Notes under the pieces: model-generated
Databases searched by the model: none
What the model was told of the DNA's origin: nothing
The model's input: the letters and a program-made list of their open reading frames with translations, nothing else
Assembly (NCBI RefSeq): GCF_012489685.1
Contig: NC_080042.1
Coordinates: 19,234,150-19,298,149 of the forward strand
Reading direction: 5' to 3'
Origin: Lotus japonicus
Lineage: Eukaryota; Streptophyta; Magnoliopsida; Fabales; Fabaceae
Length of the DNA: 64,000 bases
Shown: positions 24,927 through 55,630 of the stretch, piece by piece
How the letters are laid out: each line of letters begins with the position of its first letter
How positions within the stretch are numbered: the stretch's first letter is position 1
Made by a program: the position numbers and the translations under genes

Positions 24927-24928
24927 AT

Positions 24929-24940: not shown

Positions 24941-24998
24941 GCAAGTTCTGATTACCACACCTAACAGTGTTCAGTGATCCGGGCCGGTGTGAAAAACA

Positions 24999-26907
24999 AT
25001 GGCTACCACCAGTGAAACACAGAAAGATGGATACAATGCAAAGCCTCCCATGTTCGATGGTCAAAGGTTCGAATACTGGAAAGATAGACTCGAAAGTTTC
25101 TTTCTGGGTTTTGATGCAGATCTCTGGGATATTATTGTGGATGGCTATGAGCGTCCCGTTGATGTAGATGGCAAGAAGATCCCAAGGTCAGAGATGACTG
25201 CAGATCAAAAGAAGATGTACTCACAACATCACAAAGCAAGAACAATTCTTCTAAGTGCTATTTCTTATGAAGAGTACCAGAAGATTACAGATCGTGAGTT
25301 TGCAAAAGGCATTTTTGAATCTCTGAAGATGTCTCATGAAGGAAACAAGAAAGTCAAAGAATCAAAGGCATTGTCTTTGATCCAAAAGTATGAATCCTTC
25401 ATCATGGAGCCAAATGAGTCCATTGAAGAAATGTTCTCCAGATTTCAGTTGCTTGTAGCTGGAATACGACCTCTCAACAAGAGCTACACAACAAAAGATC
25501 ATGTCATAAGGGTCATCAGGTGTCTTCCTGAAAGCTGGATGCCTTTAGTGACATCAATAGAGTTCACGAGAGATGTCGAGAGTATGAGTTTAGAAGAACT
25601 CATCAGCATTTTGAAATGCCATGAGCTGAAGCGTTCTGAGATGCAAGATCTGAGGAAAAAGTCTATAGCCTTGAAATCCAAATCTGAAAAGGCTAAGGCT
25701 GAAAAGTCAAAGGCTCTCCAAGCTGAAGCAGAAGAATCTGAAGAAGCATCAGAAGATTCTGATGAAGATGAGCTGACTCTGATCTCCAAGAGACTCAACC
25801 GCATCTGGAAGCACAAGCAAAGCAAGTACAGAGGCTCTGGAAAAGCCAAAGGAAAGCCTGAATCCGCAGGCCAGAAGAAGTCATTAATCAAGGAAGTCAC
25901 ATGTTTTGAGTGCAAAGAATCAGGGCACTACAAAAGTGATTGTCCAAATTTGAAGAAGGACAAGAAGCCAAAGAAGCACTTCAAGACGAAGAAGAGTCTG
26001 ATGGTGACTTTTGATGAATCAGAGTCAGAGGATGTTGACTCTGATGGTGAAGTTCAATGACTCATGGCTATTGTCAAAGACAAAGGAGCAGAGTCAAAGG
26101 ATGCTGTTGACTCTGACTCAGAATCAGAAGGAGATCCCAACTCAGACGATGAAAATGAGGTATTCGCTTCTTTCTCAACCTCTGAACTGAAACATGCTTT
26201 TGTCTGATATCATGGATAAGTATAACTCTTTATTGTCTAAGCATAAAAAGTTGAAAAAGGACTTATCTGCTGCTTCTAAGACTCCTTCTGAACATGAGAA
26301 AATTATTTCTGAGTTGAAAAATGATAATCATGCTTTGATCAATTCTAACTCTGTGCTTAAGAACCAGATTGCTAAGTTAGAAGAAATAGTTGCTTGTGAT
26401 GCCTCTGATTGTAGAAATGAATCCAAGTATGAAAAGTCTTTTCAAAGATTCCTAGCTAAGAGCGTAGATAGAAGCTTAATGGCTTCAATGATCTATGGCG
26501 TAAGCAGAAATGGAATGCATGACATTGGCTATTCTAGACCTGATAGAAATGAGCCTACTGTGTCTAAAGCTAAATCATTGTATGAATGCTTTGTTCCCTC
26601 TGGTCCCATATTGCCTGATCCTTTACCTGCTGAAGTTGCTAAACCCCCTCTCAAAAAGGGATCTTTCTCCATGTCTAAATATCATGCAAAAATTCCTTTA
26701 CATTATCATGTTGAGAAACCCAAGGTGATCAGAACCTCTAGGGTAACTAACAAGAAAGGACCCAGAAAGTGGGTACCTAAGGACAAGATTATCTATGTAG
26801 CAGATATCCTTGATAGCTCCACTGAAACACCAATCATGGTATCTGGACAGTGGATGCTCGCGTCACATGACGGGAGAAAGGAGTATGTTCCAAGAGCTAA
26901 AACTTAA
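24999..26907 (+). pseudogene. gag: Sirevirus A gag, broken
   Basis: The frame starts MATTSETQKDGYN, parallel to Sirevirus B. The capsid-like part ([20 protein letters not shown]) is followed by a CCHC zinc knuckle [14 protein letters not shown] starting at about 25902. At 26058-26060 a TGA replaces the GGA codon of element B. Near 26197-26201 an extra T shifts the frame, and the rest of gag reads 26194-26907. The product would stop after the knuckle at 353 residues. It may still bind RNA but lacks the C-terminal region that leads into pol. Confidence 0.88.
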
Positions 26908-29881
26908 GCCTGGAGGCGAAGTTGGCTTTGGTGGAAACGAAAAGGGTAAAATTGTTGGTACTGGTACTATTTGTGTAGATAGTAGTCCATGCATTGATAA
27001 TGTGTTATTGGTAGACGGCTTAACTCATAACTTATTGTCTATAAGTCAATTAGTTGACAAGGGTTATGATGTTTTCAATCAAAAGTCTTGTAGGGCTGTA
27101 AGTCAGATCGATGGCTCTGTTCTGTTTAACAGCAAGAGGAAGAACAACATTTATAAGATCAAATTATCTGAGTTGGAGGCTCAGAATGTGAAGTGCCTTC
27201 TGTCTGTTAATGAAGAGCAATGGGTATGGCATAGACGGTTAGGGCATGCCAGTATGAGAAATATTTCTCAGCTGAGTAAGCTAAACCTTGTCAGGGGCTT
27301 ACCCACTCTGAAGTTCTCTTCAGACGCTCTTTGTGAAGCATGTCAGAAAGGCAAATTCACTAAAGTCCCTTTCAAGGCAAAGAATGTTGTCTCAACCTCA
27401 AGGCCGTTAGAACTTCTGCATATCGACCTGTTTGGACCAGTGAAAACTGAGTCTATAGGTGGCAAGAGATATGGGATGGTCATCGTTGACGACTATAGCC
27501 GCTGGACATGGGAAAAATTTCTAACCCGCAAGGATGAGTCTCATGCTGTGTTCTCTACCTTCATAGCCCAAGTGCAAAACGAGAAGGCTTGTAGGATTGT
27601 GCGTGTCATAAGTGACCATGGTGGAGAGTTTGAGAATGATAAGTTTGAGAGTCTGTTTGATTCCTATGGAATTGCACATGATTTCTCTTGTCGCAGAACT
27701 CCTCAACAAAATGGTGTTGTTGAGAGGAAGAACAGAACTCTTCAGGAGATGGCTAGAACCATGCTCCAAGAAACTGGCATGGCTAAGCACTTTTGGGCAG
27801 AGGCAGTAAACACAGCGTGTTACATTCAGAACAGAATCTCTGTAAGACCAATTCTGAATAGGACTCCTTATGAATTGTGGAAGAACATTAAACCCAACAT
27901 TTCTTATTTTCATCCTTTTGGTTGTGTTTGTTATGTTCTCAATACTAAGGATAGATTGCATAAATTTGATGCTAAGTCTTCTAAATGTCTGTTACTTGGT
28001 TACTCTGATAGATCTAAAGGTTTTAGATTTTATAATACTGATGCTAAGACTATTGAAGAGTCTATTCATGTTAGATTTGACGATAAGCTTGACTCTGATC
28101 AGTCAAAGCTAGTTGAGAGGTTTGCAGATTTAAGCATTAATGTTTCTGACAAAGGCAAAGCTCCAGAGGAAGATGATCCAGAAGAAGAAGCTGGTCCCTC
28201 TGATTCACAACCTCAGAAGAAAAGCAGAATCATTGCATCACATCCTAAGGAATTGATTCTGGGCAACAAAGATGAACCAGTCAGAACCAGATCAGCCTTC
28301 AAACCCTTTGAAGAGACCCTGCTTAGTCTGAAAGGATTGGTGTCCTTAATTGAACCCAAGTCCATAGATGAAGCTCTTCAGGATAAGGATTGGATTATGG
28401 CTATGGAAGAAGAATTGAATCAATTTTCCAAAAATGATGTTTGGAGCTTAGTGAAGAAACCTCAAAGTGTTCATGTGATTGGAACCAAATGGGTTTTCAG
28501 AAACAAGCTGAATGAGAAAGGAGATGTAGTGAGAAACAAGGCAAGGCTAGTTGCTCAAGGCTACAGTCAGCAAGAAGGAATAGATTACACTGAAACATTT
28601 GCTCCAGTAGTAAGATTAGAAGCAATCCGATTGCTGATCTCTTTCTCAGTGAATCACAACATAGTTCTTCATCAGATGGATGTGAAGAGTGCCTTCCTAA
28701 ATGGTTATATTTCAGAGGAAGTCTATGTTCATCAACCCCCAGGTTTCGAAGATGAGAAGAACCCAGACCATGTGTTCAAACTGAAGAAATCTCTCTAAGG
28801 TCTGAAGCAAGCTCCCAGAGCATGGTATGAGAGACTCAGCTCATTCCTTCTGGAGAATGAGTTTGTAAGGGGTAAAGTAGATACAACTCTCTTTTGCAAA
28901 ACTTACAAAGATGATATCTCAATTGTGCCAATCTATGTTGATGATATAATATTTGGCTCTGCTAATCCATCTCTATGCAAAGAATTTTCTAAGATGATGC
29001 AGGCTGAATTTGAGATGAGTATGATGGGAGAACTCAAGTACTTTCTGGGAATACAAGTAGATCAAACACCAGAAGGAACATATATCCATCAGAGCAAGTA
29101 CACTAAAGAACTTCTGAAGAAGTTCAATATGCTGGAATCAACAGTTGCCAAGACTCCAATGCATCCTACATGCATTCTGGAGAAAGAAGATGCAAGTGGT
29201 AAAGTTTGTCAGAAGCTCTATCGTGGTATGATAGGATCACTTCTATACTTAATTGCATCTAGGCCAGATATATTGTTTAGTGTTCATTTATGTGCTCGTT
29301 TCCAATCAGATCCAAGGGAAACCCACTTAACTGTTGTTAAGAGGATCCTAAGGTATCTGAAAGGCACCACTAACCTTGGCTTGATGTATAAGAAAACATC
29401 AGAGTATAAGCTTTCAGGTTATTGTGATGCTGATTATGCTGGAGATAGAACAGAGAGAAAAAGCACTTCTGGAAATTGTCAATTTCTGGGAAGCAACCTA
29501 GTCTCATGGGCAAGCAAGAGGCAATCAACCATTGCTCTATCTACTGCAGAGGCAGAATATATCTCAGCAGCAATATGTAGCACTCAGATGCTCTAGATGA
29601 AACATCAGCTGGAGGATTATCAAATCCTTGAGAGCAATATCCCAATCTATTGTGATAACACTGCTGCAATATCATTGAGTAAGAATCCTATCTTACATTC
29701 AAAGGCAAAGCACATTGAGGTAAAGTATCACTTTATTAGAGATTATGTACAGAAGGGCGTACTTCTTCTGAAGTTTGTTGATACTGACCATCAATGGGCA
29801 GATATCTTTACAAAGCCCTTAGCAGAGGATAGATTTAATTTTATTCTGAAAAATCTGAATATGGACTTTTGTCCAGCATGA
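26810..29881 (+). pseudogene. pol: Sirevirus A pol with two nonsense codons
   Basis: Read in frame +1 relative to gag, it holds a protease ([11 protein letters not shown]), an integrase zinc finger (HRRLGHAS...CEACQKG), integrase core ([16 protein letters not shown]), reverse transcriptase ([23 protein letters not shown]) and RNase H ([19 protein letters not shown]). TAC became TAA at 28796-28798, just before the second half of RT, and TGG became TAG at 29594-29596 in RNase H. There is no frameshift across pol, only these two stops and a 3-bp loss near 27073. The decay is recent and light. Confidence 0.9.
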
Positions 29882-30318
29882 AGATGGATCAGAACCTCTG
29901 ACTATGAAACTTCTTGATCAGAAGATGTCTAGTCCAGAAGGTAACTCTATCAGAGTGTATGTACCCATTGGTGCTGACTCTGAAACTGAGACAGTAAACG
30001 TGTGTCAGTATCTCTGGTGCATAGTTCCTTGTGCCCGTGTGACAGTCTGTCATAATGAGTGTAGATGTGCTTTTCTCCTGCGTGTGATATGTGTATTTAC
30101 TGTTACTATGATGTCTTTAATTTTTAACCGTTGATTTTAACTTGTTTTTTGATCAACAACGGTTACTTTTAAAAACCCACTATACACACACGTTCTCCTA
30201 CACTTAAGGTTTTACATTCTCTCTCTTCAGTTTTTCAAAACCTCTCACCCACGATCTCTCTCTCTCTCTCTCTATATTCATCATCTTCCTTTCTACCCAT
30301 AACCTTCAACCGCTCAAG

Positions 30319-30693
30319 ATGGCTCTGCATGAACAACAGCAAAGAACTAAGTTACTTGAAGCTGTTGAAGAGGCCAGAAGAAAGAAAGAGCAAGCAGAAG
30401 AAGCTGCACGTCAAGCTGCTGTACAAGCTGAAAATGCAAGATTAGAGGCTGAGAAACTTGAAGCTGAAGCTGAAGCTCTTCGATGTCAAGCACTTGCACC
30501 AGTGGTCTTTACTCCTGCTGCTTCTGACTCCACTCCAGATCATCAATCTGCTCAGAATGTTCCCTCTAACTCTGCACAGCCAAGTTCCTCCAGACTTGAC
30601 ATCATGGAACAACGTCTCAATACTCATGAGACTCTGCTGATGGACATGAAGCAAATTCTTCAAGAACTTCTGCGTCGCTCTGACAAACCTTAG
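30319..30693 (+). CDS. Sirevirus A ORF3 remnant, C-terminal coiled coil only
   Basis: A 124-residue frame begins MALHEQQQRTKLLEA and matches the last ~120 residues of the 949-residue ORF3 of element B (VALHELEQRTKLLEA onward). The rest was deleted, apparently between ATGG at the original start and GTGG at the internal site, so the original start region now feeds directly into the coiled coil in frame. An Ala/Glu-rich heptad-like stretch (residues 5-55) is followed by a Ser/Pro linker and a short C-terminal helix (DIMEQRLNTHETLLMDMKQ). Whether it is expressed is unknown. Confidence 0.65.
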   Translation: MALHEQQQRTKLLEAVEEARRKKEQAEEAARQAAVQAENARLEAEKLEAEAEALRCQALAPVVFTPAASDSTPDHQSAQNVPSNSAQPSSSRLDIMEQRLNTHETLLMDMKQILQELLRRSDKP

Positions 30694-30802
30694 TCTTAGG
30701 ATTTCTTTCGTTTTCCCTCTTAACTTTTTTATTTATTTTACTTCTACTCTATTTTGTTTTATTTGCATTATTTGCTATGCTTTGTTAGTTATAGTTTATC
30801 TT

Positions 30803-30805
<3 letters not shown>

Positions 30806-30837
<32 letters not shown>
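30806..30837 (+). repeat. (AT)n microsatellite in Sirevirus A
   Basis: An AT dinucleotide run sits in the spacer between the ORF3 remnant and the antisense ORF. Confidence 0.85.
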
Positions 30838-30839
<2 letters not shown>

Positions 30840-30913
30840 CATTGTGTTTGCAAATGTTTTTTTTATTCATATCAATTATGCTTTTACATCATACATTTCT
30901 ATTTCCCTATAAT

Positions 30914-31306
30914 CTAGAATGGAGGATCCTTCCTCATTCTTCTGCACTCCCGGCGTTGCTCTGCTCTTTCCTTTTCCAGCCGTTCAAGCGCATACTCTAT
31001 GCTGCTCAACTTGATGCTAAGCTCGGTTCTCTCAAGACTATCTTCTATAGTCTTGAGTCTTCCTTCGACTGAATCTCTTTCTTCTAGAAAATTCAGTTCT
31101 AGCTGGCTGAGTTCCTCCACTTCCTTCACGAAGCCCAGAAATTCTTTCAGATCCTTCTCCAGCTCTGGATGAAGATCTTCCTCAAGCAGTGTCGTCGTCA
31201 GCTCGTGTATTGTTCGTGTACCATCAGGATGCCGAATGTTCAGGAACATGTCTTCCTCGAAGGCTTTCCTTTTGAGCTCTTCCAGTGCAACCATGTATGA
31301 AGCCAT
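30914..31306 (-). CDS. Sirevirus A antisense ORF, 130-aa charged helical protein
   Basis: An intact minus-strand frame runs from MASYMVALEEL to a stop just after RMRKDPPF. It is rich in Glu, Lys, Arg and Leu with likely coiled-coil character (residues 35-120) and has no signal peptide or membrane span. Element B has a frame of exactly the same length and ends in the same place, with about 28 substitutions and no gaps, many conservative (K/R, E/D, I/V, L/M). It lies between ORF3 and the 3' LTR, facing ORF3. A conserved block with a TATA-like CCTATATAAAGG lies about 50 bp upstream of its ATG. No family is recognised. It stays open although gag, pol and ORF3 of this element are all broken. Confidence 0.65.
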   Translation of the reverse strand: MASYMVALEELKRKAFEEDMFLNIRHPDGTRTIHELTTTLLEEDLHPELEKDLKEFLGFVKEVEELSQLELNFLEERDSVEGRLKTIEDSLERTELSIKLSSIEYALERLEKERAEQRRECRRMRKDPPF

Positions 31307-31355
31307 TTCTGATTATGGTATTGATCGAGTTGTGAAGCTTACCCTCTTCTCCATT

Positions 31356-31440
31356 CCTTTATATAGGCTTCATTCTATCTCTCTGAAAGTTAATGCTCCT
31401 ACAGTTTCTCGAGGTTCAGTCCTTGGTAACTGAAGCTTCT
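31356..31440 (-). promoter_or_regulatory. Putative promoter of the Sirevirus A antisense ORF
   Basis: On the minus strand a block with CTCGAGAAACTGT, ATTAACTTTCAGAGAGA and then CCTATATAAAGG (31356-31367) matches 53639-53720 in element B. Spacing from the TATA-like motif to the ATG is about 50 bp in both. The promoter role is inferred. Confidence 0.5.
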
Positions 31441-32057
31441 CTTTACTCCCTTGGCCGGTGGTAAACGTTCTTCTTTTGCATTAACTCCTCTCTTTAATTC
31501 GCCTAACTCTGATTCATGCATCATTATTTTCTTTGAAACTTAGACCTTCTCTAAGGGGGAGTACCTTGTTCTTCAAACTAAGTTTTTCACACCCCAAGCT
31601 TTTTGCTTATGACAAAAAGGGGGAGTACAACCCAGTTTTTGATGTGTAAGATGTGTTAGTGTGATTTATTTTTCTTTTGGAAAATTTAAGAATTCCACCT
31701 TTATGACCATAGATGTGTCACTGGGCAAATACAAGGAATACATTTCACTTCTTCTTAAGTGATTTTAGTTTAACTCTGATACCCAAGACTCTAATACCTT
31801 GTCCGTTGACTCTGAATACTTATGCGCCACTCTGAACTCCTATATTATTTAGCTCAGAATCTAGACTTTACTAACGTTTTCATCAAGTATTAGATTCAGG
31901 GGGAGCTAAGCTCAGAATCAAGCAGTGACTTGAATTCAGAATGAGCAAGATAAACTATTCACATCAGGATAAGTCTTATTCTATATCTCTAAACTCTGAG
32001 TGAATTCAGTTTATTGTTTAAGAATTGTTCATCAAAAATCTTAGTTTTGTCATCATC

Positions 32058-32071
32058 AAAAAGGGGGAGAT
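32058..32071 (+). other. Polypurine tract of Sirevirus A
   Basis: AAAAGGGGGAGAT directly precedes the 3' LTR. Similar G-runs occur upstream (about 31610-31626, 31555 and 31910), as reported for Sireviruses, which carry several tracts. Confidence 0.85.
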
Positions 32072-33225
32072 TGTAAGATCAAGTTTTGATCTAGTAGTAC
32101 AACTCTATGTTTTGATGATTACAAGTTAACCTTTTGATATGAACAATTATGGTACTCTAACGTGTTTTTTTCTGAGTGTGTTATTTACAGGCTCTGACCT
32201 CTATTTTATCTCACACGAATCAGAAGCACTATGCTTAAAGAGTGACCCAAGCAACGCTTTCGCATTCTCCATGTTCAGTCTGAACAGTGGAAAAGCTTCA
32301 CTTAAAGCTCTGATGATCCAGAAGATCTGACAACCAAGAGACTCTGAAGGCTCAGAGGCTCTGATGGTGTAGAAGACTCTGACGATCCAGACTCTGAAGA
32401 GTGAAGACTCTGAAGTCCAGAAGCAACTGGCTCTGAAGACCATGTACTGATCCTCTGAAGTGAAGATCAGAAGGTACAACGGTCAGAGGATCCAAGCTTC
32501 CCTCTGACTCTGATCAATCAGCTTCACAAGTTCCAATACGAAGCGCTCCTCTGATCAGAAGTCTACGAGGTTAAGATCAAGTCACTATCCAAAGTACAAA
32601 AGCAAAGTGTACTATCCTGACGACCTACCTAACATCCTCAGCCACAGCAGAAGCTGGAATTTCCAGAACTGTCCTCCAACGGTAGCATTTCCATGCAACG
32701 TTCAACCCTAATCCTTGGAGTATAAATAGAGGCTGAAGATTGAAAGAAGCGGCTAGAAGCATTCACACACGCGCAAGAAATATTCAAATCCTTCTAAGCT
32801 TTCTTTCATCTTGAATTTCATTGTGTTTACTATAAGCTTTTTAGAAGCACTTTCTTTGTAAACAAGAACTTCATATACAGTTGTATAGTTTGCCTTTAGG
32901 AGATCAAGGTTGATCGGATCCTAGAGAAGGCTAAGAGAGTGAATCTTAGTGTGAGCTAAGTCAGTGTATTGTTAGTCACTTGTAGGTTTCAAGTGCAGTT
33001 GTAACAAATACCTGATTAGTGGATTGCCTTCATTCTAAGAAGGAAGAAATCACCTTAACGGGTGGACTGGATTAGCTTGAGTGATTTATCAAGTGAACCA
33101 GGATAAAATCCTTGTGTGCTTTTCTATCTCTTATCTTTAGCACTTAGTTTGTTTCGTAAGATTTGCCAAAATCTTTAAGGTGGAAGTTTTATCCCCCCCC
33201 CTTTCTACCGTTTTTCATACCTTCA
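32072..33225 (+). repeat. Sirevirus A 3' LTR
   Basis: 1154 bp, same ends as the 5' LTR. It lacks a stretch after 'aaaagcttca' (about 42 bp) and one near the C-run at 33192 (about 18 bp), plus a few base changes. Confidence 0.92.
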
Positions 33226-43484: not shown

Positions 43485-44712
43485 TGTAAGATCAAGTTTT
43501 GATCTAGTAGTACAACTCTATGTTTTGATGATTACAAGTTAACCTTTTGATATGAACAATTGTGGTACTCTAACGTGTTTTTCTGAGTGTGCTATTTACA
43601 GGCTCTGACCCTGACTCAATTTCACACAAATCAGAAGCACTGTGTATAAAGGGTAACCCAAGCAACGCTTTCGCATTCACCATGTTCAGTATGAACAGTG
43701 GAAAAGCTTCAGAAGATCTGAAGCTATACAAACTCTGATGAGGACTCAGTCGCTAGAAGCTCTGATGATCCAGAAGTTCTGACAACCAAGAAACACTGAA
43801 GGTTCAGATGTTCCGATGGTGTAGAAGACTCTGAAGATCCAGAAGCTGAATAGTGGAAACTCTGAAGTCCAGAAGCAAGAAACTCTGAAGGCCATGTTCT
43901 TCCCTCTGAGTTCAGAATCAGAAGATACAATGGTCAGAGGATCTGTGCTTTCCCTCTGACTCTGATCAACCGGCTTCACAAGTTCCAATACGAAGCATTC
44001 CTCTGATCAGAAGTCTCCTAGGTTAAAAGGTCAAGTCGCTATCCAAGTACAAAAGCAAGTGTACCTTCCTGACGACCTACCTAACGTTCTCAGCCACAGC
44101 AGAAGCTGGATTTTCCAGAACTGCCCTCCAACGGTAGCATTTCCATGCAACGCTCAACCCTAATCCTTGGAGTATATATAGAGGCTGAAGATTGAAAGAA
44201 GCGGCTAGAATAGAAGAAGAGAAGTGAATAGAAGAAGCAACACACGCGCAAGATATTCAAAATATTCTAAGCTTTCTTTCATCTTGTAATTTATTTTAGT
44301 TTACACTCAGCTTATTCAGAAGCAAACCCTTGTAAACACCAACCTCAAACAGTTGTTTGATTTTTCCTTTAGGAGATCAAGGTTGATCGGATCCTAGAGA
44401 AGACTAAGAGAGTGAATCTTAGTGTGAGCTAAGTCAGTGTAATTGTTAGTCACTTGTAGGTTTCAAGTGCAGTTGTAACTCTTACCTGATTAGTGGATTG
44501 CCTTCATTCTAAGAAGGAAGAAATCACCTTAACGGGTGGACTGGAGTAGCTTGAGTGATTTATCAAGTGAACCAGGATAAAATCCTTGTGTGCTTTTCTA
44601 TCTCTATCTTTTGCACTTAGTTCTCGAAAAGATTTGTTAAAATCTTTAAGGTGGTAGTTTTGTACTGAAAACGTTATTCAAACCCCCCTTTCTACCGTTT
44701 TTCATACCTTCA
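43485..44712 (+). repeat. Sirevirus B 5' LTR
   Basis: TGTAAGATCAAG to ACCTTCA, 1228 bp. A TATA-like GAGTATATATAGAGG lies near 44170. The U3 part is dense in CTCTGA/CAGAAG repeats. Confidence 0.95.
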
Positions 44713-44784: not shown

Positions 44785-46695
44785 ATGGCTGCCACCACCA
44801 GTGAAACTCAAAGAGATGGTTACAACGCAAAGCCTCCTATGTTCGATGGTCAAAGGTTCGAATATTGGAAAGATAGACTGGAAAGTTTCTTTCTGGGTTT
44901 CGATGCAGATCTCTGGGATATTATTGTGGATGGCTATGAGCGTCCAGTTGATGCAGATGGCAAAAAGATCCCAAGGTCAGAGATGTCTGCAGATCAAAAG
45001 AAGCTGTACTCACAACATCATAAAGCAAGAGCAATTCTTCTAAGTGCTATCTCCTATGAGGAGTACCAGAAGATTACAGATCGTGAGTTTGCTAAAGGCA
45101 TATTTGATTCTCTGAAGATGTCTCATGAAGGAAACAAGAAAGTCAAAGAATCAAAGGCATTGTCTTTGATCCAAAAGTATGAATCCTTCATCATGGAGCC
45201 AAATGAGTCCATTGAAGAAATGTTCTCCAGATTTCAACTGCTTGTAGCTGGCATACGTCCTCTCAACAAGAGCTACACAACAAAAGATCACGTCATAAGG
45301 GTCATCAGGTGTCTTCCTGAAAGTTGGATGCCTTTGGTGACTTCAATAGAGCTCACGAGAGATGTTGAGAATATGAGTTTAGAAGAACTCATCAGCATTT
45401 TGAAATGCCATGAGCTGAAGCGCTCAGAGATGCAAGATCTGAGGAAAAAGTCCATAGCCTTGAAATCCAAATCTGAAAAGGCTAAGGTTGAGAAGTCAAA
45501 GGCTCTTCAAGCTGAAGAAGAAGAATCTGAAGAAGCATCAGAAGATTCTGATGAAGATGAGCTGACTCTGATCTCCAAGAGACTCAACCGCATCTGGAAG
45601 CACAGGCAGAGCAAGTTCAAAGGCTCTGGAAAGGCAAGAGGAAAGTCTGAATCCTCAGGTCAGAAGAAGTCATCAATCAAGGAAGTCACTTGCTTTGAGT
45701 GCAAAGAATCAGGGCACTACAAAAGTGACTGTCCAAAATTGAAGAAGGACAAGAAGCCAAAGAAGCACTTCAAGACCAAGAAGAGTCTGATGGTGACATT
45801 CGATGAATCAGAGTCAGAGGATGTTGACTCTGATGGTGAAGTCCAAGGACTCATGGCTATTGTCAAAGACAAAGGAACAGAGTCAAAGGAAGCTGTTGAC
45901 TCTGACTCAGAATCAGAAGGAGATCCAGACTCTGACGATGAAAATGAGGTATTTGCTTCCTTCTCTACCTCTGAACTGAAACATGCTTTGTCTGATATCA
46001 TGGATAAGTATAACTCCTTGTTGTCTAAGCATAAGAAGCTGAAAAAGAACTTATCTGCTGTTTCTAAAACTCCTTCTGAACATGAGAAAATCATATCTGA
46101 TTTGAAAAATGATAACCATGCTTTAGTTAATTCTAACTCTGTGCTTAAGAATCAAATTGCAAAGTTAGAAGAAGTTATTGCCTGCGATGCCTCTGATAGT
46201 AAGCATGAATCTAAGTATGAAAAATCTTTTCAAAGATTTCTGGCTAAAAGCGTAGATAGAAGCTTAATGGCTTCAATGATCTATGGTGTAAGCAGAAATG
46301 GAATGCATGGCATTGGCTATTCTAAACCAATTAGAAATGAGCCTTCTGTGTCTAAAGCTAAATCCTTGTATGAATGCTTTGTTCCCTCTGGTACCATATT
46401 GCCTGATCCTGTACCTGCTGAAGTTGCTAAAAACCCTCTTAAAAAGGGATCTTTCTCTATGACTAAATATCATGCAAATATTCCTTTAAAATATCATGTT
46501 GAGACACCCAAGGTGATCAGAACCTTTGGGGTAACTAACAAAAGAGGACCCAGAAAGTGGGTACCTAAGGACAAGATTATCTATGTTGCAGATATCCTTG
46601 ATAGCTCCACTGAAACACCAATCATGGTATCTGGACAGTGGATGCTCGCGTCACATGACGGGAGAAAAGCGTATGTTCCGAGAGCTGAAACTTAA
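44785..46695 (+). CDS. gag: Sirevirus B Gag polyprotein
   Basis: 636 residues starting [14 protein letters not shown], the first ATG after the primer site. The N-terminal capsid-like part ([17 protein letters not shown], about residues 20-150) matches copia-type gag. One CCHC zinc knuckle, [14 protein letters not shown], lies near residue 303. Acidic Ser/Asp/Glu-rich stretches surround it. A coiled-coil-like region ([33 protein letters not shown]) follows around residues 410-470. The C-terminus ([21 protein letters not shown]) overlaps the pol frame for about 110 bases. Gag should form the particle that packages the element RNA. Intact, unlike the copy in Sirevirus A. Confidence 0.92.
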
Positions 46696-49687
46696 GCCTG
46701 GAGGCGAAGTTGGCTTTGGAGGAAATGAAAAGGGTAAAATTATTGGTACTGGTACTATATGTGTAGATAGTAGTCCATGCATTGATAATGTTTTATTGGT
46801 AGACGGCTTAACACATAACTTATTGTCTATAAGTCAATTAGCTGACAAGGGTTATGATGTTATATTCAATCAAAAGTCCTGCCGGGCTGTAAGTCAGATC
46901 GATGGCTCTGTTCTGTTTAACAGCAAGAGGAAGAACAACATTTATAAGATCAGATTATCTGAGTTGGAGGCTCAGAATGTGAAGTGCCTTCTGTCTGTTA
47001 ATGAAGAGCAGTGGGTATGGCATAGACGGTTAGGGCATGCCAGTATGAGAAAGATTTCTCAGCTGAGCAAGCTAAACCTTGTCAGGGGCTTACCCAATCT
47101 GAAGTTCGCTTCAGACGCTCTTTGTGAAGCATGTCAGAAAGGCAAATTCACAAAAGTCCCTTTCAAGGCAAAGAATGTTGTCTCAACCTCAAGGCCGTTA
47201 GAACTTCTGCATATCGACCTGTTTGGACCAGTGAAAACTGAGTCTATAGGTGGCAAGAGATATGGGATGGTTATCGTTGATGACTATAGCCGCTGGACAT
47301 GGGTAAAGTTTCTAACCCGCAAGGATGAGTCTCATGCTGTGTTCTCTACCTTCATTGCTCAAGTGCAAAACGAGAAGGCTTGTAGAATTGTGCGTGTCAG
47401 AAGTGACCATGGTGGAGAGTTTGAGAATGACAAGTTTGAGAGTCTGTTTGATTCCTATGGAATTACACATGATTTCTCTTGTCCCAGAACTCCTCAACAA
47501 AATGGTGTTGTTGAGAGGAAGAATAGAACTCTTCAGGAGATGGCTAGAACCATGCTCCAAGAAACTGGCATGGCTAAGCACTTTTGGGCAGAGGCAGTAA
47601 ATACAGCATGTTACATTCAGAACAGAATCTCTGTGAGACCAATTCTGAATAAGACTCCTTATGAATTGTGGAAGAACATAAAACCCAACATTTCTTATTT
47701 TCATCCTTTTGGCTGTGTTTGTTATGTTCTCAATACTAAGGATAGATTGCATAAATTTGATGCTAAATCTTCTAAGTGTCTATTACTTGGTTATTCTGAT
47801 AGATCTAAAGGTTTTAGATTTTATAATACTGATGCTAAGACTATTGAAGAATCTATTCATGTTAGATTTGATGATAAGCTTGACTCTGACCAGTCAAAGC
47901 TAGTTGAAAAGTTTGCAGATTTAAGCATTAATGTTTCTGACAAAGGCAAAGCTCCAGAGGAAGTTGAGCCAGAGGAAGATGAACCAGAGGAAGAAGCTGG
48001 TCCCTCTAACTCACAAACTCTGAAGAAGAGCAGAATCACTGCAGCTCATCCTAAGGAATTGATTCTGGGCAACAAAGATGAACCAGTCAGAACCAGATCT
48101 GCCTTCAGACCCTCTGAAGAGACCTTGCTGAGTCTGAAAGGATTGGTGTCCTTAATTGAACCCAAGTCCATAGATGAAGCTCTTCAGGACAAGGATTGGA
48201 TTCTGGCCATGGAAGAAGAATTGAATCAATTCTCCAAGAACGATGTTTGGAGCTTAGTGAAGAAGCCTGAGAATGTCCATGTTATTGGAACGAAATGGGT
48301 ATTCAGAAACAAGCTAAATGAGAAAGGAGATGTAGTCAGAAACAAGGCAAGGCTAGTTGCTCAAGGCTACAGCCAGCAGGAAGGAATAGACTACACTGAA
48401 ACATTTGCTCCAGTAGCAAGACTGGAAGCAATCAGACTATTGATTTCTTTCTCAGTAAATCACAACATAGTTCTACATCAGATGGACGTAAAGAGTGCCT
48501 TCCTAAATGGTTATATCTCAGAGGAAGTCTATGTTCATCAACCCCCAGGTTTTGAAGATGAAAAGAAACCAGACCATGTGTTCAAATTGAAGAAATCACT
48601 CTACGGTCTGAAGCAAGCTCCCAGAGCATGGTATGAGAGACTTAGCTCATTCCTTCTGGAGAATGAGTTTGTAAGGGGTAAAGTAGATACAACTCTCTTT
48701 TGCAAGACTTATAAAGATGATATCTTAATTGTGCAAATTTATGTTGATGATATTATATTTGGTTCTGCTAATCAATCTCTATGCAAAGAATTTTCTGAGA
48801 TGATGCAGGCTGAATTTGAGATGAGTATGATGGGAGAATTAAAGTACTTTCTGGGAATACAAGTTGATCAAACACCAGAAGGAACATATATCCATCAGAG
48901 CAAGTACACTAAGGAACTTCTGAAGAAGTTCAATATGCTGGAATCTACAGTGGCCAAGACTCCAATGCATCCAACATGCATTCTGGAAAAAGAAGATATA
49001 AGTGGTAAAGTATGTCAGAAGCTCTATCGTGGCATGATAGGTTCACTTCTGTACTTAACTGCATCTAGGCCAGACATACTATTTAGTGTTCATTTATGTG
49101 CTCGTTTCCAATCAGATCCAAGGGAAACCCACTTAACTGCTGTTAAGAGGATCCTAAGGTATCTGAAAGGCACCACTAACCTTGGCTTGATGTATAAGAA
49201 AACATCAGAGTATAAGCTTTCAGGTTATTGTGATGCTGATTATGCTGGAGATAGAACAGAGAGAAAAAGTACTTCTGGAAATTGTCAATTTCTGGGAAGC
49301 AATCTAGTCTCATGGGCAAGCAAGAGGCAATCAACCATTGCTCTATCAACTGCAGAGGCAGAATATATCTCAGCAGCAATATGCAGCACTCAGATGCTCT
49401 GGATGAAACATCAGCTGGAGGATTATCAGATCCTTGAGAGCAATATCCCAATCTATTGTGATAACACTGCTGCAATTTCGTTGAGCAAGAATCCTATCTT
49501 GCATTCAAGGGCAAAGCACATTGAGGTAAAGTATCACTTCATTAGAGATTATGTGCAGAAGGGCGTACTTCTTCTGAAGTTTGTTGATACTGACCATCAA
49601 TGGGCAGATATCTTTACAAAGCCCTTAGCTGAAGATAGATTTAATTTTATTCTGAAAAATCTAAACATGGACTTTTGTCCAGAGTGA
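46583..49687 (+). CDS. pol: Sirevirus B Pol: protease, integrase, RT, RNase H
   Basis: A 1034-residue open frame in the +1 frame relative to gag. Its first ATG need not be a true start, since the usual route is fusion to Gag by a frameshift. Domains in order: protease [14 protein letters not shown] (about 12-25); zinc finger HRRLGHAS...CEACQKGK (about 140-175); integrase core [22 protein letters not shown] and [15 protein letters not shown] from about 545 ([25 protein letters not shown]); RNase H ([34 protein letters not shown]). It ends MDFCPE. All catalytic motifs I looked for are present, so the enzymes are probably active. Domain order is that of Ty1/copia. Confidence 0.95.
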
Positions 49688-50132
49688 AGATAGATCAGAA
49701 CCTCTGACTATGATACTTCTTGATCAGAAGATGTCTAGTCCAGAAGGTAACTCAATCAGAGTGTGTGTGTGCCCACTGGTACTGACTCTGAAGCTGAGAC
49801 AACAACACGTGCGTCAGAATTTCTGATGCATAGTTCCTTGTGCCCGTGTGACAGTCTGTTGTGATTGCGTGTAGATATGCTTATCTTCTGTGTGTGATTG
49901 TGTATTTTACTGTTACTGTCTATCTTTAATTTTCAACCGTTGATCTTAAAGTGCTTTTTGAATCAACAACGGTTATTTGATAAAACCCACTATACACACA
50001 CGTTCTCTCTCACTTCCGGTTTTCACTCTCGCACTCCCTGCTTTTCAAAACCGCTTCCTTCGTGATTTCTCTCTCGATCTCTCTTCATCCTTCAAACTTC
50101 ATCTTCTACCTCAAACCTTCAACCTCTTCAAA

Positions 50133-52982
50133 ATGGTGAGACAAACCAGAAGATCTACTGCAGATGCACCTCAGTTCCCTCACATGGTAGTCGGGTTGGC
50201 AACGGGTCAACGGGGCTCTGAGAACCCAGCACAAGAACAAGCTCAAGCTCAAGAGAAGATTGTTCCTATTGCAGAACGGGGCTGTGCCGTTCACTGTGTA
50301 TTTCCTCCTGAGGAACTCCAAGTCCTTGCAGAATGGAGATTCAACCTCGACAACTTGGCTGCAAATGGGTTTGATCTCCGTCCTGAAGTCCAAGCTCAAG
50401 GTTGGGGAAACTACTTCAATCGACTTCGAGGACCGGTGTATGAGAAGCTAGTAAAGGAATTCTGGAAGCACGCTGATTGTGATGACACTCAGGTGGTCTC
50501 TTACATACTGGGTAGGAAGATCATCATCACGGAGAAGTCATTCGTGAATCTGCTAGGTGCAGAAACTGCTCATGGGTATCGGTTCTCACTGACGGAATCG
50601 AAGCTGAAACCCAGAACCAAGGACATCGTCAACAAGGCCCTGTACACCACTTTCAAACCGGGCAAGACGAGCTACAAAGTGATGGACCTTCACCCCAAAC
50701 TGAGAATCTGGCACAAGATCCTGCTCAACTGCATCAATCAACGACCAAAGGGCAGTTCTCCAGACTACATCAACTTCAATCAGAAGGCGATGCTGTTCTT
50801 CATTCAAGACAAGGAGAAGATCTGCCTTCCCTACTTCCTGTTCTCCTATTTGAAGGAATGCATCCGGAAGTCTCGCACCACCTCCTCCATCAAGTCAGCC
50901 ATCAAATATATTCCTTTTGGGAGGCTGATCTCAGACTTTCTCATTGAAAGCAACTTGGTGCAAGATTTGATCAATGCTGGTTGCACAGAGGATTTGAGCA
51001 CAATTGTTAGCGATGTCTTCACTGCCAACTCTCTGAAGAAGATGGGTTTGGTCCAGAAGAAGATTGCTCCTGCTCATGAGGACACATCTTCTGAGATCAG
51101 AGGAAGAAGAATGCCTCTGAATGACTACCCTCTGTGGACTCAAGCAGACCATCCTGAAGCCATCAGATGCTATGTTGAAGACCTCAGGGCTCAAGGATTC
51201 GAGATTGACCTTGATGATTTCGTCAGCAGACTTCCACCAGCTCCAGAGTTTCCTTCTCCTCCCAAGAAGAAAACCAAGAGGAAGATGGTTCTGGACGAAT
51301 CCTCAGAGGAATCTGATGTCCCTCTGGTCAAGAAGGCGAAGAGCAAGCCTGCTGATGATGATGGTGATGATAGTGAGGATGGTCCTCCAAAGAAGAAGCA
51401 GAAGAAAGTCAGAATTGTGGTGAAGCCTACTCGGGTGGAACCAGCTGCTGCAGAGGTCAGAAGGACTGAACCTCCTGCCAGAGTGACTCGATCATCAGCA
51501 CATACAAGTAAGCCTGCACTTACCTCTGATGATGATTTGAATTTATTTGATGCACTCCCAATTTCTGCCTTACTCCAACACTCTTCAAATCCCCTCACTC
51601 CTATTCATGAATCCCAGCCAGCCGCACAAACCACCTCTCCACCACATTCCCCAAGATCTTCATTCTTTCAACCTTCTCCTACTGAAGCACCACTCTGGAA
51701 TTTGCTTCAGAACCAACCCTCTAGGTCAGAAGATCCAACCTCTCTCCTTACCATTCCATACGACCCATTAACTTCTGAACCCATCATCCCCAACCAACCA
51801 GAACCCAAACCAACAGAACCACAACCCAGAACGTCTGATCACTCTGCTCCCAGAGCATCAGCACGTCCTGCTGTCAGAACCACGGATACAGACTCTTCAT
51901 CAGCCTTCACACCTGTATCCTTCCCCATCAATGTCTTTGACTCTCCTCCCTCCAATACCTCTGAATCACTTAGAAAATTCATGGAGGTTAGGAAAGAGAA
52001 GGTATCTGCCTTGGAAGAATATTACCTTACCTGTCCAAGCCCTAGGCAATATCCTGGCCCTAGACCTGAACGTCTAGTTGACCCAGATGAACCTATCTTG
52101 GCCAATCCTATCCAAGAGGCAGACCCCTTAGTCCAACAGGCTCACCCTGTCCCTGACCAACAAGAGCCAATTCAACCAGACCCTGAACCTGCACAATCAG
52201 TATCTAACCAATCCTCGGTTAGATCACCTCACCCTCTGGTTGAAACTTCAGACCCTCACCGTGGAACCTCTGAACCCAATGCTCCCATAATTAACATTGG
52301 TTCTCCACAAGGTGCCTCTGAAGCTCATAGCAGCAATCACCCAGCCTCTCCTGCACCCCACCTCTCCATCATTCCCTATACTCACCTTCAACCCACATCT
52401 CTCTCTGAGTGCATCAATATTTTCAATCATGAAGCCTCCTTGAGGCTCCGCAATGTGCACGGTCAGACTGACCTCAGTGAGAATGCTGAAAATGTGGCTG
52501 ATGAGTGGAACAATTTGAGCACTTGGCTGGTGGCTCAGTTTCCCGTTATGCTGCAGCTCCTGCATGCAGAGGGAAGTCAGAGCATTGAGGCTGCAAAGCA
52601 AAGGTTTGCTAGGAGGGTGGCTCTTCATGAACTCGAACAGAGAACCAAGCTTCTTGAAGCCATTGAAGAAGCCAAGAGACAGAAAGAACAAGAAGAAGAA
52701 GCTGCCCGTCAAGCCGCAGCTCAGGCTGAACAAGCCAGACTTGAGGCAGAACGTCTTGAAGCTGAAGCTGAGGCAGAGCGACTTGCACCAGTTCTGTTTA
52801 CTCCTGCTGCTTCTGCTTCCATTCCAGAACCTCAAGCTGCTCAGAACGTTCCTTCCAGCTCTACTCCGACAAGCTCATCCAGACTCGACATCATGGAACA
52901 ACGTCTTGACACTCATGAATCCATGCTGATTGAGATGAAGCACATGATGATGGAACTTCTGCGCCGTTCTGACAAATCTTAG
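50133..52982 (+). CDS. Sirevirus B ORF3 (env-like position), 949 aa
   Basis: The frame is open from 49977, but the first ATG is at 50133 (MVRQTRRSTADAPQ), preceded by a 5'-leader-like tract. This start fits the deletion junction in Sirevirus A. The N-terminal third (YILGRKIIITEKSFVNLLG, MLFFIQDKEKICLPYFLF) resembles the DNA/RNA-associated domain seen in many plant retroelement ORFs. The middle is Pro/Ser/Thr-rich with basic nuclear-signal-like runs (PPKKKTKRK, PPKKKQKKVR). The C-terminus is an Ala/Glu/Arg coiled coil (about residues 828-885) and a short terminal helix. I see no signal peptide or membrane span, so an envelope role is not supported here. Sireviruses typically carry an extra ORF at this place; its role is unknown. 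Confidence 0.8.
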   Translation: MVRQTRRSTADAPQFPHMVVGLATGQRGSENPAQEQAQAQEKIVPIAERGCAVHCVFPPEELQVLAEWRFNLDNLAANGFDLRPEVQAQGWGNYFNRLRGPVYEKLVKEFWKHADCDDTQVVSYILGRKIIITEKSFVNLLGAETAHGYRFSLTESKLKPRTKDIVNKALYTTFKPGKTSYKVMDLHPKLRIWHKILLNCINQRPKGSSPDYINFNQKAMLFFIQDKEKICLPYFLFSYLKECIRKSRTTSSIKSAIKYIPFGRLISDFLIESNLVQDLINAGCTEDLSTIVSDVFTANSLKKMGLVQKKIAPAHEDTSSEIRGRRMPLNDYPLWTQADHPEAIRCYVEDLRAQGFEIDLDDFVSRLPPAPEFPSPPKKKTKRKMVLDESSEESDVPLVKKAKSKPADDDGDDSEDGPPKKKQKKVRIVVKPTRVEPAAAEVRRTEPPARVTRSSAHTSKPALTSDDDLNLFDALPISALLQHSSNPLTPIHESQPAAQTTSPPHSPRSSFFQPSPTEAPLWNLLQNQPSRSEDPTSLLTIPYDPLTSEPIIPNQPEPKPTEPQPRTSDHSAPRASARPAVRTTDTDSSSAFTPVSFPINVFDSPPSNTSESLRKFMEVRKEKVSALEEYYLTCPSPRQYPGPRPERLVDPDEPILANPIQEADPLVQQAHPVPDQQEPIQPDPEPAQSVSNQSSVRSPHPLVETSDPHRGTSEPNAPIINIGSPQGASEAHSSNHPASPAPHLSIIPYTHLQPTSLSECINIFNHEASLRLRNVHGQTDLSENAENVADEWNNLSTWLVAQFPVMLQLLHAEGSQSIEAAKQRFARRVALHELEQRTKLLEAIEEAKRQKEQEEEAARQAAAQAEQARLEAERLEAEAEAERLAPVLFTPAASASIPEPQAAQNVPSSSTPTSSSRLDIMEQRLDTHESMLIEMKHMMMELLRRSDKS

Positions 52983-53195
52983 TTTTTAGGATCTCTTCTT
53001 TTTCTTCCTTTTTCTTTTTATTTAACGTTGTTTTATTTAAACTCTGCTTATTTACTTACTTTAATTTGTTCATTTGTGATTCTATATGCATATATCTATA
53101 TATATTTGTGTCACATATGTTTGCAAAACCTGTTTTATTCATAATTGTTCTATGTTTACATCATAATTCTTTCCATCATACATTATTCCCTATAT

Positions 53196-53588
53196 CTAGA
53201 ATGGAGGATCCTTCCTCATTCTTCTGCATTCTTGGCGCTGCTCCACTCTTTCCTTCTCCAGACGATCCAATGCATACTCTATGTTGCCAAGTTTGATGCT
53301 CAGATCATCTTTTTCTAGACTATCTTCTGTCGTCTTGAGTCTCTTTTCCACAGTCTCCTTCTCTTCCAGCAGATTCAGCTCCCGCTGGCAAAGCTCCTGA
53401 ATCTCTTCCACGAAGCAGAGGAACTCCTTCAGATCTTTCTCCATCTCTGGACCAAGATCTTCTTCCAGCAGTGTCTTCGTCAGCTCTTGTATGGTCTTTG
53501 TACCATCGGGATGCCTAATATTGAGGAACATATCTTCCTCAAACGCCTTCCTTCTGAGCTCTTCTAATGCCATTCTGTATGATGCCAT
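53196..53588 (-). CDS. Sirevirus B antisense ORF, 130-aa charged helical protein
   Basis: A minus-strand frame from MASYRMALEELRRKAF to RMRKDPPF, the same length and end points as in Sirevirus A (30914-31306). The most constant parts are KAFEEDMFLNIRHPDGT (residues 14-30), TLLEEDL, EKDLKEFL and the C-terminal ECRRMRKDPPF. The sequence is Glu/Lys/Leu-rich with likely coiled coils. It lies in the 1.4-kb gap between ORF3 and the 3' LTR, tail to tail with ORF3. An upstream block with a TATA-like motif is shared with element A. It does not overlap any sense ORF, so constraint cannot be a shadow of one. No family is recognised; it may act on RNA or particles, but that is a guess. Confidence 0.7.
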   Translation of the reverse strand: MASYRMALEELRRKAFEEDMFLNIRHPDGTKTIQELTKTLLEEDLGPEMEKDLKEFLCFVEEIQELCQRELNLLEEKETVEKRLKTTEDSLEKDDLSIKLGNIEYALDRLEKERVEQRQECRRMRKDPPF

Positions 53589-53638
53589 TTTTCTTACTGA
53601 AAATTATTCGAGCTGTGAAGCTTACCTTTCTCTCCAAC

Positions 53639-53720
53639 GCTTTATATAGGCTTCACTTTCTCTCTGAAAGTTAATGCTCTTACAGTTTCTCGAGGTTAAG
53701 TACTTGGTAACTGACCCTTC
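53639..53720 (-). promoter_or_regulatory. Putative promoter of the Sirevirus B antisense ORF
   Basis: On the minus strand: CTCGAGAAACTGTAAGAGC, ATTAACTTTCAGAGAGA, then CCTATATAAAGC (53639-53650), about 50 bp before the ATG. It aligns almost base for base with 31356-31440. Confidence 0.5.
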
Positions 53721-54388
53721 TATTTACTCACTTGACCGGTGGTAAACGTTCATCCCTTGCATTAACTCTTCTATTTATTATCGCCTCACTCTGATTCTTA
53801 CATCGTCTTCATTTTCTTTCAACTTAGACCTTCTCTAAGGGGGAGTACCTTGTACTTCAAGCTAAGTTTTTCACACCCCGAGCTTTTTGCTTATGACAAA
53901 AAGGGGGAGTAAACCCAGTTTTTGATGTGTAAGATGATGTGTAAGATGTGTTAGTGTGACTTATTTTTCTTTTGGAGATTTTAAGAGTTCCACCTTCATG
54001 ACCATAGATGTGTCACTGGGCAAATACAAGGAATACATTTCACTTCTTCTGAAGTGATTCTAAGTTGACTCTGATACCCAAGACTCTGATACCTTGTCCA
54101 TGACTCTGATCACTTATGCGCTCTGATTATTCGTTTTTCATCTATGTCATAAGCTTTTCACTCTGAACTCTTATATGATTTAGCTCAGAATCTAGACTTT
54201 ACTAACGTTTTCATCAAGTATTAGATTCAGGGGGAGCTAAGCTCAGAATCAAGCAGTGACTTGAATTCAGAATGAGCAAGATAAACTATTCACATCAGGA
54301 TAAGTCTTATTCTATATCTCTAAACTCTGAGTGAATTCAGTTTAATGTTTAAGAATTGTTCATCAAAAATCTTAGTTTTGTCATCATC

Positions 54389-54402
54389 AAAAAGGGGGAG
54401 AT
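54389..54402 (+). other. Polypurine tract of Sirevirus B
   Basis: AAAAAGGGGGAGAT abuts the 3' LTR. Further G-runs lie upstream, near 53838, 53900 and 54229. Confidence 0.85.
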
Positions 54403-55630
54403 TGTAAGATCAAGTTTTGATCTAGTAGTACAACTCTATGTTTTGATGATTACAAGTTAACCTTTTGATATGAACAATTGTGGTACTCTAACGTGTTTTT
54501 CTGAGTGTGCTATTTACAGGCTCTGACCCTGACTCAATTTCACACAAATCAGAAGCACTGTGTATAAAGGGTAACCCAAGCAACGCTTTCGCATTCACCA
54601 TGTTCAGTATGAACAGTGGAAAAGCTTCAGAAGATCTGAAGCTATACAAACTCTGATGAGGACTCAGTCGCTAGAAGCTCTGATGATCCAGAAGTTCTGA
54701 CAACCAAGAAACACTGAAGGTTCAGATGTTCCGATGGTGTAGAAGACTCTGAAGATCCAGAAGCTGAATAGTGGAAACTCTGAAGTCCAGAAGCAAGAAA
54801 CTCTGAAGGCCATGTTCTTCCCTCTGAGTTCAGAATCAGAAGATACAATGGTCAGAGGATCTGTGCTTTCCCTCTGACTCTGATCAACCGGCTTCACAAG
54901 TTCCAATACGAAGCATTCCTCTGATCAGAAGTCTCCTAGGTTAAAAGGTCAAGTCGCTATCCAAGTACAAAAGCAAGTGTACCTTCCTGACGACCTACCT
55001 AACGTTCTCAGCCACAGCAGAAGCTGGATTTTCCAGAACTGCCCTCCAACGGTAGCATTTCCATGCAACGCTCAACCCTAATCCTTGGAGTATATATAGA
55101 GGCTGAAGATTGAAAGAAGCGGCTAGAATAGAAGAAGAGAAGTGAATAGAAGAAGCAACACACGCGCAAGATATTCAAAATATTCTAAGCTTTCTTTCAT
55201 CTTGTAATTTATTTTAGTTTACACTCAGCTTATTCAGAAGCAAACCCTTGTAAACACCAACCTCAAACAGTTGTTTGATTTTTCCTTTAGGAGATCAAGG
55301 TTGATCGGATCCTAGAGAAGACTAAGAGAGTGAATCTTAGTGTGAGCTAAGTCAGTGTAATTGTTAGTCACTTGTAGGTTTCAAGTGCAGTTGTAACTCT
55401 TACCTGATTAGTGGATTGCCTTCATTCTAAGAAGGAAGAAATCACCTTAACGGGTGGACTGGAGTAGCTTGAGTGATTTATCAAGTGAACCAGGATAAAA
55501 TCCTTGTGTGCTTTTCTATCTCTATCTTTTGCACTTAGTTCTCGAAAAGATTTGTTAAAATCTTTAAGGTGGTAGTTTTGTACTGAAAACGTTATTCAAA
55601 CCCCCCTTTCTACCGTTTTTCATACCTTCA
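54403..55630 (+). repeat. Sirevirus B 3' LTR
   Basis: 1228 bp. I found no difference from the 5' LTR in the stretches compared, and the short frames inside both LTRs translate identically. Confidence 0.95.

What the first reader, a model, noticed from the sequence alone, without database searches (positions are those of the whole stretch)
53196..53720. Conserved antisense gene with its own promoter in two Sireviruses
Both Sireviruses carry an intact 130-codon ORF opposite to gag-pol, between ORF3 and the 3' LTR. The copies differ at about 28 residues (my count) with no indel, many changes are conservative, and both start and stop at the same places. No sense ORF overlaps it, so the constraint cannot be borrowed. 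The DNA upstream of both ATGs is near-identical and has a TATA-like CCTATATAAAG about 50 bp away. Antisense extra ORFs are known in Tat-type Ty3/gypsy elements; I do not know of one described for Sireviruses. It could be a regulator or a particle partner.
Basis: partly seen in the sequence, partly recalled or inferred. Interest (0 to 1): 0.88.

Follow-up and report, generated by a model that had tools for sequence, protein, structure and literature searches.

The report
Hidden reverse-strand gene in plant retrotransposons
Sireviruses, a common kind of plant jumping element, here carry a small extra gene written on the opposite strand, which evolution has kept about as strictly as the element's own core genes, so it probably makes a protein the element needs.

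Summary
Confirmed. Both Sireviruses in the window carry an intact 130-codon antisense ORF between ORF3 and the 3' LTR. The copies differ at 28 residues without an indel; 53 of 85 base changes are at third codon positions; omega = 0.097 (bootstrap 0.043-0.178; other estimators 0.14 and 0.25), similar to gag and pol. A phantom antisense ORF inside pol, the control, shows the opposite pattern. Seven database relatives were found (five full length, 47-74% identical). In the window's genome (554 Mb; by size probably Lotus japonicus) the 150 best of 4,387 candidates were scored; none has a stop. A 250-kb stretch read whole held four copies: two intact, two from divergent subfamilies with a frameshift each. 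These four and the window's two have a TATA box 58-62 nt before the ATG; four subfamilies share invariant upstream blocks and a CTTCACA initiator-like site about 32 nt after the TATA. The protein is acidic, predicted to be a helical hairpin, and matches no family clearly. Antisense accessory genes are known from Ty3/gypsy Tat/Retand elements; I found none described for Sireviruses, and the large survey counted only ORFs of 250 codons or more. Best reading: a real accessory gene with its own minus-strand promoter, probably a trans-acting coiled-coil adaptor or regulator. Transcription, translation and function are untested.

The parts
53196..53588 (-). antisense ORF (aORF), element B, 130 codons
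30914..31306 (-). antisense ORF (aORF), element A, 130 codons
53641..53648 (-). TATA box of the aORF, element B (TATATAAA; first T 60 nt before the ATG)
31358..31365 (-). TATA box of the aORF, element A (TATATAAA; 59 nt before the ATG)
53614..53620 (-). CTTCACA block, the same in the five aligned sequences; predicted start site at the A at 53616, 32 nt after the first T of the TATA (prediction only)
53683..53695 (-). CCTCGAGAAACTG, 13-bp block upstream of the TATA, the same in the five aligned sequences of four subfamilies
53737..53746 (-). TTTACCACCG, upstream block, the same in the five aligned sequences
53134..53139 (-). AATAAA 57-62 nt after the aORF stop (possible antisense poly(A) signal), element B
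   Evidence: kept in A and L015, lost at this place in L010, none in the 200 nt after L026
30862..30867 (-). AATAAA after the aORF stop, element A
43485..44712 (+). element B 5' LTR
   Evidence: 100% identical to the 3' LTR; TCAAG target duplication
54403..55630 (+). element B 3' LTR
44785..46695 (+). element B gag ORF (PF14223, zinc knuckle)
46583..49687 (+). element B pol ORF (integrase before RT, Ty1/copia order)
49977..52982 (+). element B ORF3 (env-like position; start is the list's first start codon, a TTG; PF20167 match at 44.1 bits, just under its cut-off of 45)
53838..54400 (+). four Sirevirus polypurine octamers AGGGGGAG (53838, 53902, 54229, 54393), the last 2 bp before the 3' LTR
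23712..33193 (+). element A: LTRs about 23712-24926 and 32071-33193 (98-99% identical where matched), gag and pol interrupted, ORF3 reduced to 30319-30693

Best explanation
The ORF is a genuine protein-coding accessory gene of this Sirevirus lineage, convergent to gag-pol-ORF3. Shown by computation: its protein has been under purifying selection about as strong as that on gag and pol over a deep divergence, and at least four Sirevirus subfamilies of the same genome carry it at the same place. Inferred: it is transcribed from its own minus-strand RNA polymerase II promoter (TATA, initiator-like CTTCACA about 32 nt downstream, invariant upstream blocks), independently of the LTR, giving a short mRNA with a leader of about 28 nt. 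Inferred and least certain: the roughly 15.5-kDa acidic helical-hairpin protein acts in trans as a coiled-coil adaptor, most likely as a regulator of element expression made before or apart from the gag-pol RNA, less likely as a partner of Gag or ORF3 protein in the particle.
For: A-B omega 0.096-0.097 (NG86, ML) against gag 0.10, pol 0.095-0.112, RT/RH 0.093 and ORF3 C-terminus 0.21. Control antisense ORF in pol: changes 10/3/1 by codon position, dN above dS. Subfamily C over codons 1-112: omega 0.098 to A, 0.238 to B. Seven database relatives, five full length, these five starting MA and ending PPF. 150 of 150 scored genome copies open (see caveat). Copies in subfamilies C and D lie beside Sirevirus linker and LTR sequence. 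TATA 58-62 nt upstream in A, B, L010, L015, L026 and L032, and in the form TATAAAAA in L001-L008. Upstream footprint. Helical hairpin model, mean pLDDT 78; pI 4.7-5.1 in the seven full-length members.
Against: No RNA, Ribo-seq or protein evidence was available. YN00 gives omega 0.25. Two of the four copies in the 250-kb stretch have a frameshift; they look old but were not dated. That stretch was chosen where the ranked list showed hits, and one of its two intact copies was on that list, so it is not a random sample. The top-150 list is picked by score, includes the window's copy, and reflects a recent burst, so its openness is not by itself evidence of selection. The conserved upstream blocks could also serve the sense RNA (they adjoin the polypurine cluster). 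The AATAAA is lost at its place in L010 and absent after L026. The database relatives sit on contigs of at most 483-1102 bases with unknown context. Against the most distant copy (D, L032) the comparisons gave dN 0.46-0.52 with dS 1.0, 2.4 or saturated, so constraint there is weak or unmeasurable.
Confidence: 0.75

Rival explanations
1. It is a real antisense gene, but its protein is a structural or assembly partner of Gag or of the ORF3 protein (whose C-terminus also looks like a coiled coil by eye) and is made in step with particle formation, not a regulator.
For: Helical-hairpin, acidic protein with no clear nucleic-acid-binding family match; ORF3 C-terminus is charged and heptad-like by eye (sequence shown); gene kept next to ORF3 in the same divergent module.
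Against: Element A keeps the aORF although most of ORF3 is gone, though A may be a recent internal deletion. A separate conserved promoter would be odd for a protein needed in step with Gag.
Confidence: 0.25
2. The conserved stretch acts as an antisense RNA or DNA element (silencing trigger or reverse-transcription signal); the reading frame is incidental.
For: Upstream DNA is as conserved as or more conserved than the ORF; antisense transcripts that may act as RNA are known in other elements (PMC7264820, parts 1-2 of 3).
Against: The ORF's changes fall by codon position in one open frame (18/14/53), omega about 0.1; an RNA element gives no such pattern.
Confidence: 0.04
3. A host gene fragment was captured by one ancestor and hitchhikes without use to the element.
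For: Short, compact gene with a promoter-like site of its own, as a transduced gene might have; origin unknown.
Against: It sits at the same place in four subfamilies that are about 43-78% identical in protein and, between A, B and C, shows gag-pol-like constraint; no clear Pfam family.
Confidence: 0.06
4. Chance ORF kept open because the copies are young.
For: The 150 top genome copies are identical in protein, a sign of a recent burst.
Against: A and B differ at 85 of 393 bases, dS about 1.2 by ML, with 28 residue changes where at least 36 appeared in every one of 20,000 random trials.
Confidence: 0.02

Closest known systems
Antisense additional ORFs (aORF-3R) of Ty3/gypsy elements: Grande gene23, RIRE2, Retand ORF4, PvRetro13 ORF2
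   Same: Antisense, between pol and 3' LTR, present in many copies; Grande gene23 is reported to be transcribed from its own upstream promoter and its protein to be nuclear (PMC7264820).
   Different: Here the element is Ty1/copia (Sirevirus), the ORF is 130 codons against 211-939 aa in the 15 bean families (Gao 2014, PMC4093653, passages), and Transposase_28 (PF04195) is not among the Pfam matches of 9 members.
Sirevirus env-like ORF3 (eORF-3'F of SIRE elements)
   Same: Extra gene of the same lineage, downstream of pol; B has one at 49977-52982.
   Different: Sense strand and much longer; tblastn of the aORF protein over the window finds no credible match there. In the survey 74% of SIRE elements have it (PMC6317226, passages).
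HTLV-1 HBZ and HTLV-2 APH-2 type antisense retroviral genes
   Same: Antisense accessory gene in the 3' part with a nuclear protein (PMC11963269, passages); HBZ as a coiled-coil regulator is recalled.
   Different: HBZ is transcribed from the 3' LTR (PMC7264820, for the promoter; splicing recalled); here the promoter-like site is internal, next to the ATG. No homology was tested or is claimed.

Membership tests
Sirevirus (SIRE lineage, Ty1/copia) | gag, then integrase before reverse transcriptase | tested here: met
   both elements
Sirevirus (SIRE lineage, Ty1/copia) | several AGGGGGAG polypurine octamers in the linker, the last followed by AT then the 3' LTR's TG | tested here: met
   four octamers in each element; definition from PMC2829016 passages
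Sirevirus (SIRE lineage, Ty1/copia) | position in a reverse transcriptase tree | not tested
   no reference RT set was gathered
Ty3/gypsy antisense aORF-3R (Tat/Retand) | antisense ORF between pol and 3' LTR | tested here: met
Ty3/gypsy antisense aORF-3R (Tat/Retand) | carried by a Ty3/gypsy element | tested here: not met
   copia order
Ty3/gypsy antisense aORF-3R (Tat/Retand) | Transposase_28 domain (PF04195), in 97% of Retand clusters by PMC11963269 (passages) | tested here: not met
   not among the 14 families matched at E up to 1 by any of 9 members (weak matches may be filtered out)
Ty3/gypsy antisense aORF-3R (Tat/Retand) | transcribed from its own promoter, as reported for Grande gene23 | not testable with these tools
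   no RNA data; only a promoter-like footprint
Known protein fold family | clear structural relative in the PDB | tested here: inconclusive

The most novel reading that the evidence does not exclude
Sireviruses of legumes, and perhaps more widely, carry an ancient, unrecognised antisense accessory gene with its own promoter: a new protein family and a Ty1/copia counterpart, arisen independently, of the antisense genes of gypsy elements and deltaretroviruses. Because it can be expressed without the LTR promoter, it would let the element act in the cell before or without gag-pol expression, for example on silencing or on LTR activity.
Probability: 0.55. Interest if true: 0.75.

Novelty: new variant of a known kind. 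Interest (0 to 1): 0.64.

Why it matters
Sireviruses are an abundant lineage of plant mobile elements (about 21% of the maize genome by the abstract of PMC3599292), and a large survey of extra ORFs in plant LTR retrotransposons counted only ORFs of 250 codons or more (PMC6317226, passages), so a class of short antisense genes may have been missed. A constrained minus-strand gene in Ty1/copia would suggest that antisense accessory genes arose at least twice in plant retrotransposons. It would also make the question of what they do testable in a model legume with many candidate copies and public RNA data, if the host is Lotus.

Tried and rejected
Homology by family: Pfam gave 14 families at E up to 1, the best at 0.014, mostly coiled-coil matches and none seen as credible; among them Cucumovirus 2b for one member at E 0.11, not credited since the protein is acidic. 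Solved structures by sequence: only GpsB at E 0.69. Structure searches gave generic helical hairpins. An LC8-binding motif was considered from memory and dropped, because the TIQE of B is TIHE in A and TISE in P0003 and P0004.

Other Sireviruses in the viral and bacterial genome collections: none found with the aORF alignment or with B's RT/RH piece.

A first dN/dS of the ORF3 C-terminus compared two different frames and was discarded; it was redone in register.

Paper searches for an earlier description: 20 of 131, 9 of 9, 4 of 4, 1 of 1, 0, 20 of 373 and 7 of 7 papers were listed; none by its listing describes an antisense gene in a Sirevirus. Nine papers on elements, hosts or isolates were opened, as passages or, for PMC7264820, parts 1-2 of 3; a tenth, PMC3036077 on AtCOPIA4, proved to use 'antisense' for knock-down lines (passages). 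Most subscription papers are not in that library; Steinbauerova 2011 (Ty3/gypsy extra ORFs) was seen only as a reference.

Full report
What is there. Two Ty1/copia elements lie in the window. Element B (43485-55630) has identical LTRs, a TCAAG target duplication, TGGTATCAGAGC after the 5' LTR (a usual plant primer site, recalled), gag, pol with integrase before reverse transcriptase, a 1001-codon ORF3, and four AGGGGGAG octamers of which the last stands 2 bp before the 3' LTR. These fit the published Sirevirus marks (PMC2829016, passages). Element A (about 23712-33193) is a relative with 98-99% identical LTRs, interrupted gag and pol, and only the last 124 codons of ORF3. Both carry an intact antisense ORF of 130 codons after ORF3.

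Is it coding? The two copies differ at 85 of 393 bases without an indel; changes fall 18/14/53 on codon positions 1/2/3 and alter 28 residues. Of the six frames, only this one is open in both copies. Random placement of the same substitutions never gave fewer than 36 residue changes in 20,000 trials. A codon-model estimate gives omega 0.097, bootstrap 0.043-0.178, 2dlnL 67 against omega 1. By other estimators the ratio is 0.096 (NG86), 0.14 (LWL85) and 0.25 (YN00) from the values. gag, pol and RT/RH pieces give 0.10, 0.095 and 0.093 by NG86 and pol 0.112 by ML; these pieces are what aligns of A's interrupted frames. The ORF3 C-terminus gives 0.21. The test discriminates: a 146-codon antisense ORF inside pol, open in both elements, shows 10/3/1 and dN above dS, as expected for the back of a sense gene.

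The comparison is deep. Synonymous divergence is about 1.2 in the aORF but 0.16-0.24 in gag-pol. Identity along the elements is about 89-97% in gag-pol, 61-83% from ORF3 to the aORF's promoter region, 88-95% in the next 340 bp, and 98-99% in the last linker stretch before the LTR. A and B therefore seem to be mosaics whose ORF3-aORF module separated long before the rest; recombination between subfamilies is the simplest reading (inference), faster evolution of the module the alternative.

Relatives. Three searches of 5.8 billion proteins found seven relatives in all, five of full length (129-130 aa, 47-74% identical to B) and two partial ones; the five full-length ones start MA and end PPF. 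Only ORFs that were called are in such a database, so broken copies are not counted there. Two of the seven come from a Bradyrhizobium draft genome and are probably plant contamination (inference); the paper on those isolates says that the strains were tested on legumes and some were trapped on soybean (PMC7104290, passages). Pfam gave only weak matches.

The window's own genome. G000 has 553.7 Mb in 65 contigs, several of 68-137 Mb; this fits the 554-Mb, six-chromosome Lotus japonicus assembly (PMC7508351, passages; identity inferred, not shown). A search with B's protein gave 4,387 candidates, of which 150 were scored; all 150, the window's own copy B among them, encode the identical protein without a stop. 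That shows a large recent burst, and since the list is ranked it says little about selection. Eight fetched copies are about 98-99% identical to B over 3.1 kb, into the 3' LTR. Searches for more divergent copies with other queries never got an answer.

To see copies whatever their score I read 250 kb in one stretch (C6:27.00-27.25 Mb). It was chosen because the ranked list showed hits there, so it is not a random place. It held four aORF copies. Two are intact members of B's family: L010, which is on the ranked list, and L015, with 2 residue changes. One (L026) is a third subfamily, 75% identical over residues 1-115, with a frameshift near codon 115. One (L032) is a fourth, 73-75% identical to database protein P0007 in two pieces, with a frameshift near codon 34. 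So 2 of 4 are open, or 1 of 3 without the copy already listed; the broken ones look old but were not dated. L026 lies in what looks like one Sirevirus, about 90% like A and B from the LTR through much of pol and interrupted by another insertion; L032 is next to a Sirevirus linker and partial LTR 82% like B's. Over codons 1-112, A-C gives omega 0.098 and B-C 0.238. Against D (L032), A-D gave dN 0.515 with saturated dS, B-D dN 0.479 and dS 2.44, and C-D over 77 codons dN 0.463 and dS 1.0; these are not evidence of strong constraint.

Promoter. CTATATAAAG occurs twice in 64 kb, both times upstream of the two ATGs (0.20 expected). A TATA box stands 58-62 nt before the ATG in A, B and the four tile copies, and L001-L008 have it in the form TATAAAAA. 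An alignment of A, B, L010, L026 and L032 (four subfamilies) shows CCTCGAGAAACTG, TTTACCACCG and CTTCACA the same in all five and the TATA box kept with one variable base. The stretch between the two convergent stop codons is the least conserved (0.61-0.75). An AATAAA follows the stop in A, B and L015 but is lost at that place in L010 and absent in the 200 nt after L026. No transcript was examined.

Compared with what is known. [quoted passage not shown] PMC11963269, passages). In common bean the 15 families with an antisense ORF2 are Ty3/gypsy, while the two extra-ORF Ty1/copia families, and the related LjRetro3 of Lotus, are described with an env-like ORF in the passages seen (PMC4093653). 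The large survey counted extra ORFs of at least 250 codons and gives the sense eORF-3'F as characteristic of SIRE (PMC6317226, passages). The listings of seven searches of the held library showed no antisense gene in a Sirevirus. It works like the gypsy antisense genes in place and strand but is not a member: other superfamily, no Transposase_28.

Verdict. A real, constrained antisense gene: about 0.95. Own promoter: about 0.75, from footprint alone. Trans-acting regulator or adaptor rather than particle partner: about 0.5. New variant of a known kind.

Noticed in passing
23712-33193 against 43485-55630: The two elements look mosaic: gag-pol about 89-97% identical, ORF3-aORF module 61-83%, last linker stretch before the 3' LTR 98-99%, suggesting recombination between Sirevirus subfamilies.
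   Followed up: partly
27521-27961 and 47312-47752, minus strand: A 146-codon antisense ORF inside pol is open in both elements but shows the constraint of the sense frame; a good example of a phantom antisense ORF.
   Followed up: yes
L001-L008: Eight copies of B's family elsewhere in the genome have a TATAAAAA promoter variant and a run of A before the ATG, unlike the window copy.
   Followed up: no
3405-4729: Direct repeat with a unit of about 464 bp; ORFs of 159 and 115 aa are open in two successive units.
   Followed up: no
60188-60440: Short tandem repeat with a unit of about 36 bp; similar sequence recurs in L031.
   Followed up: no
database proteins P0004 and P0009: A Bradyrhizobium draft genome (TM233) holds two different copies of this plant retrotransposon protein, probably plant DNA contamination.
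   Followed up: partly
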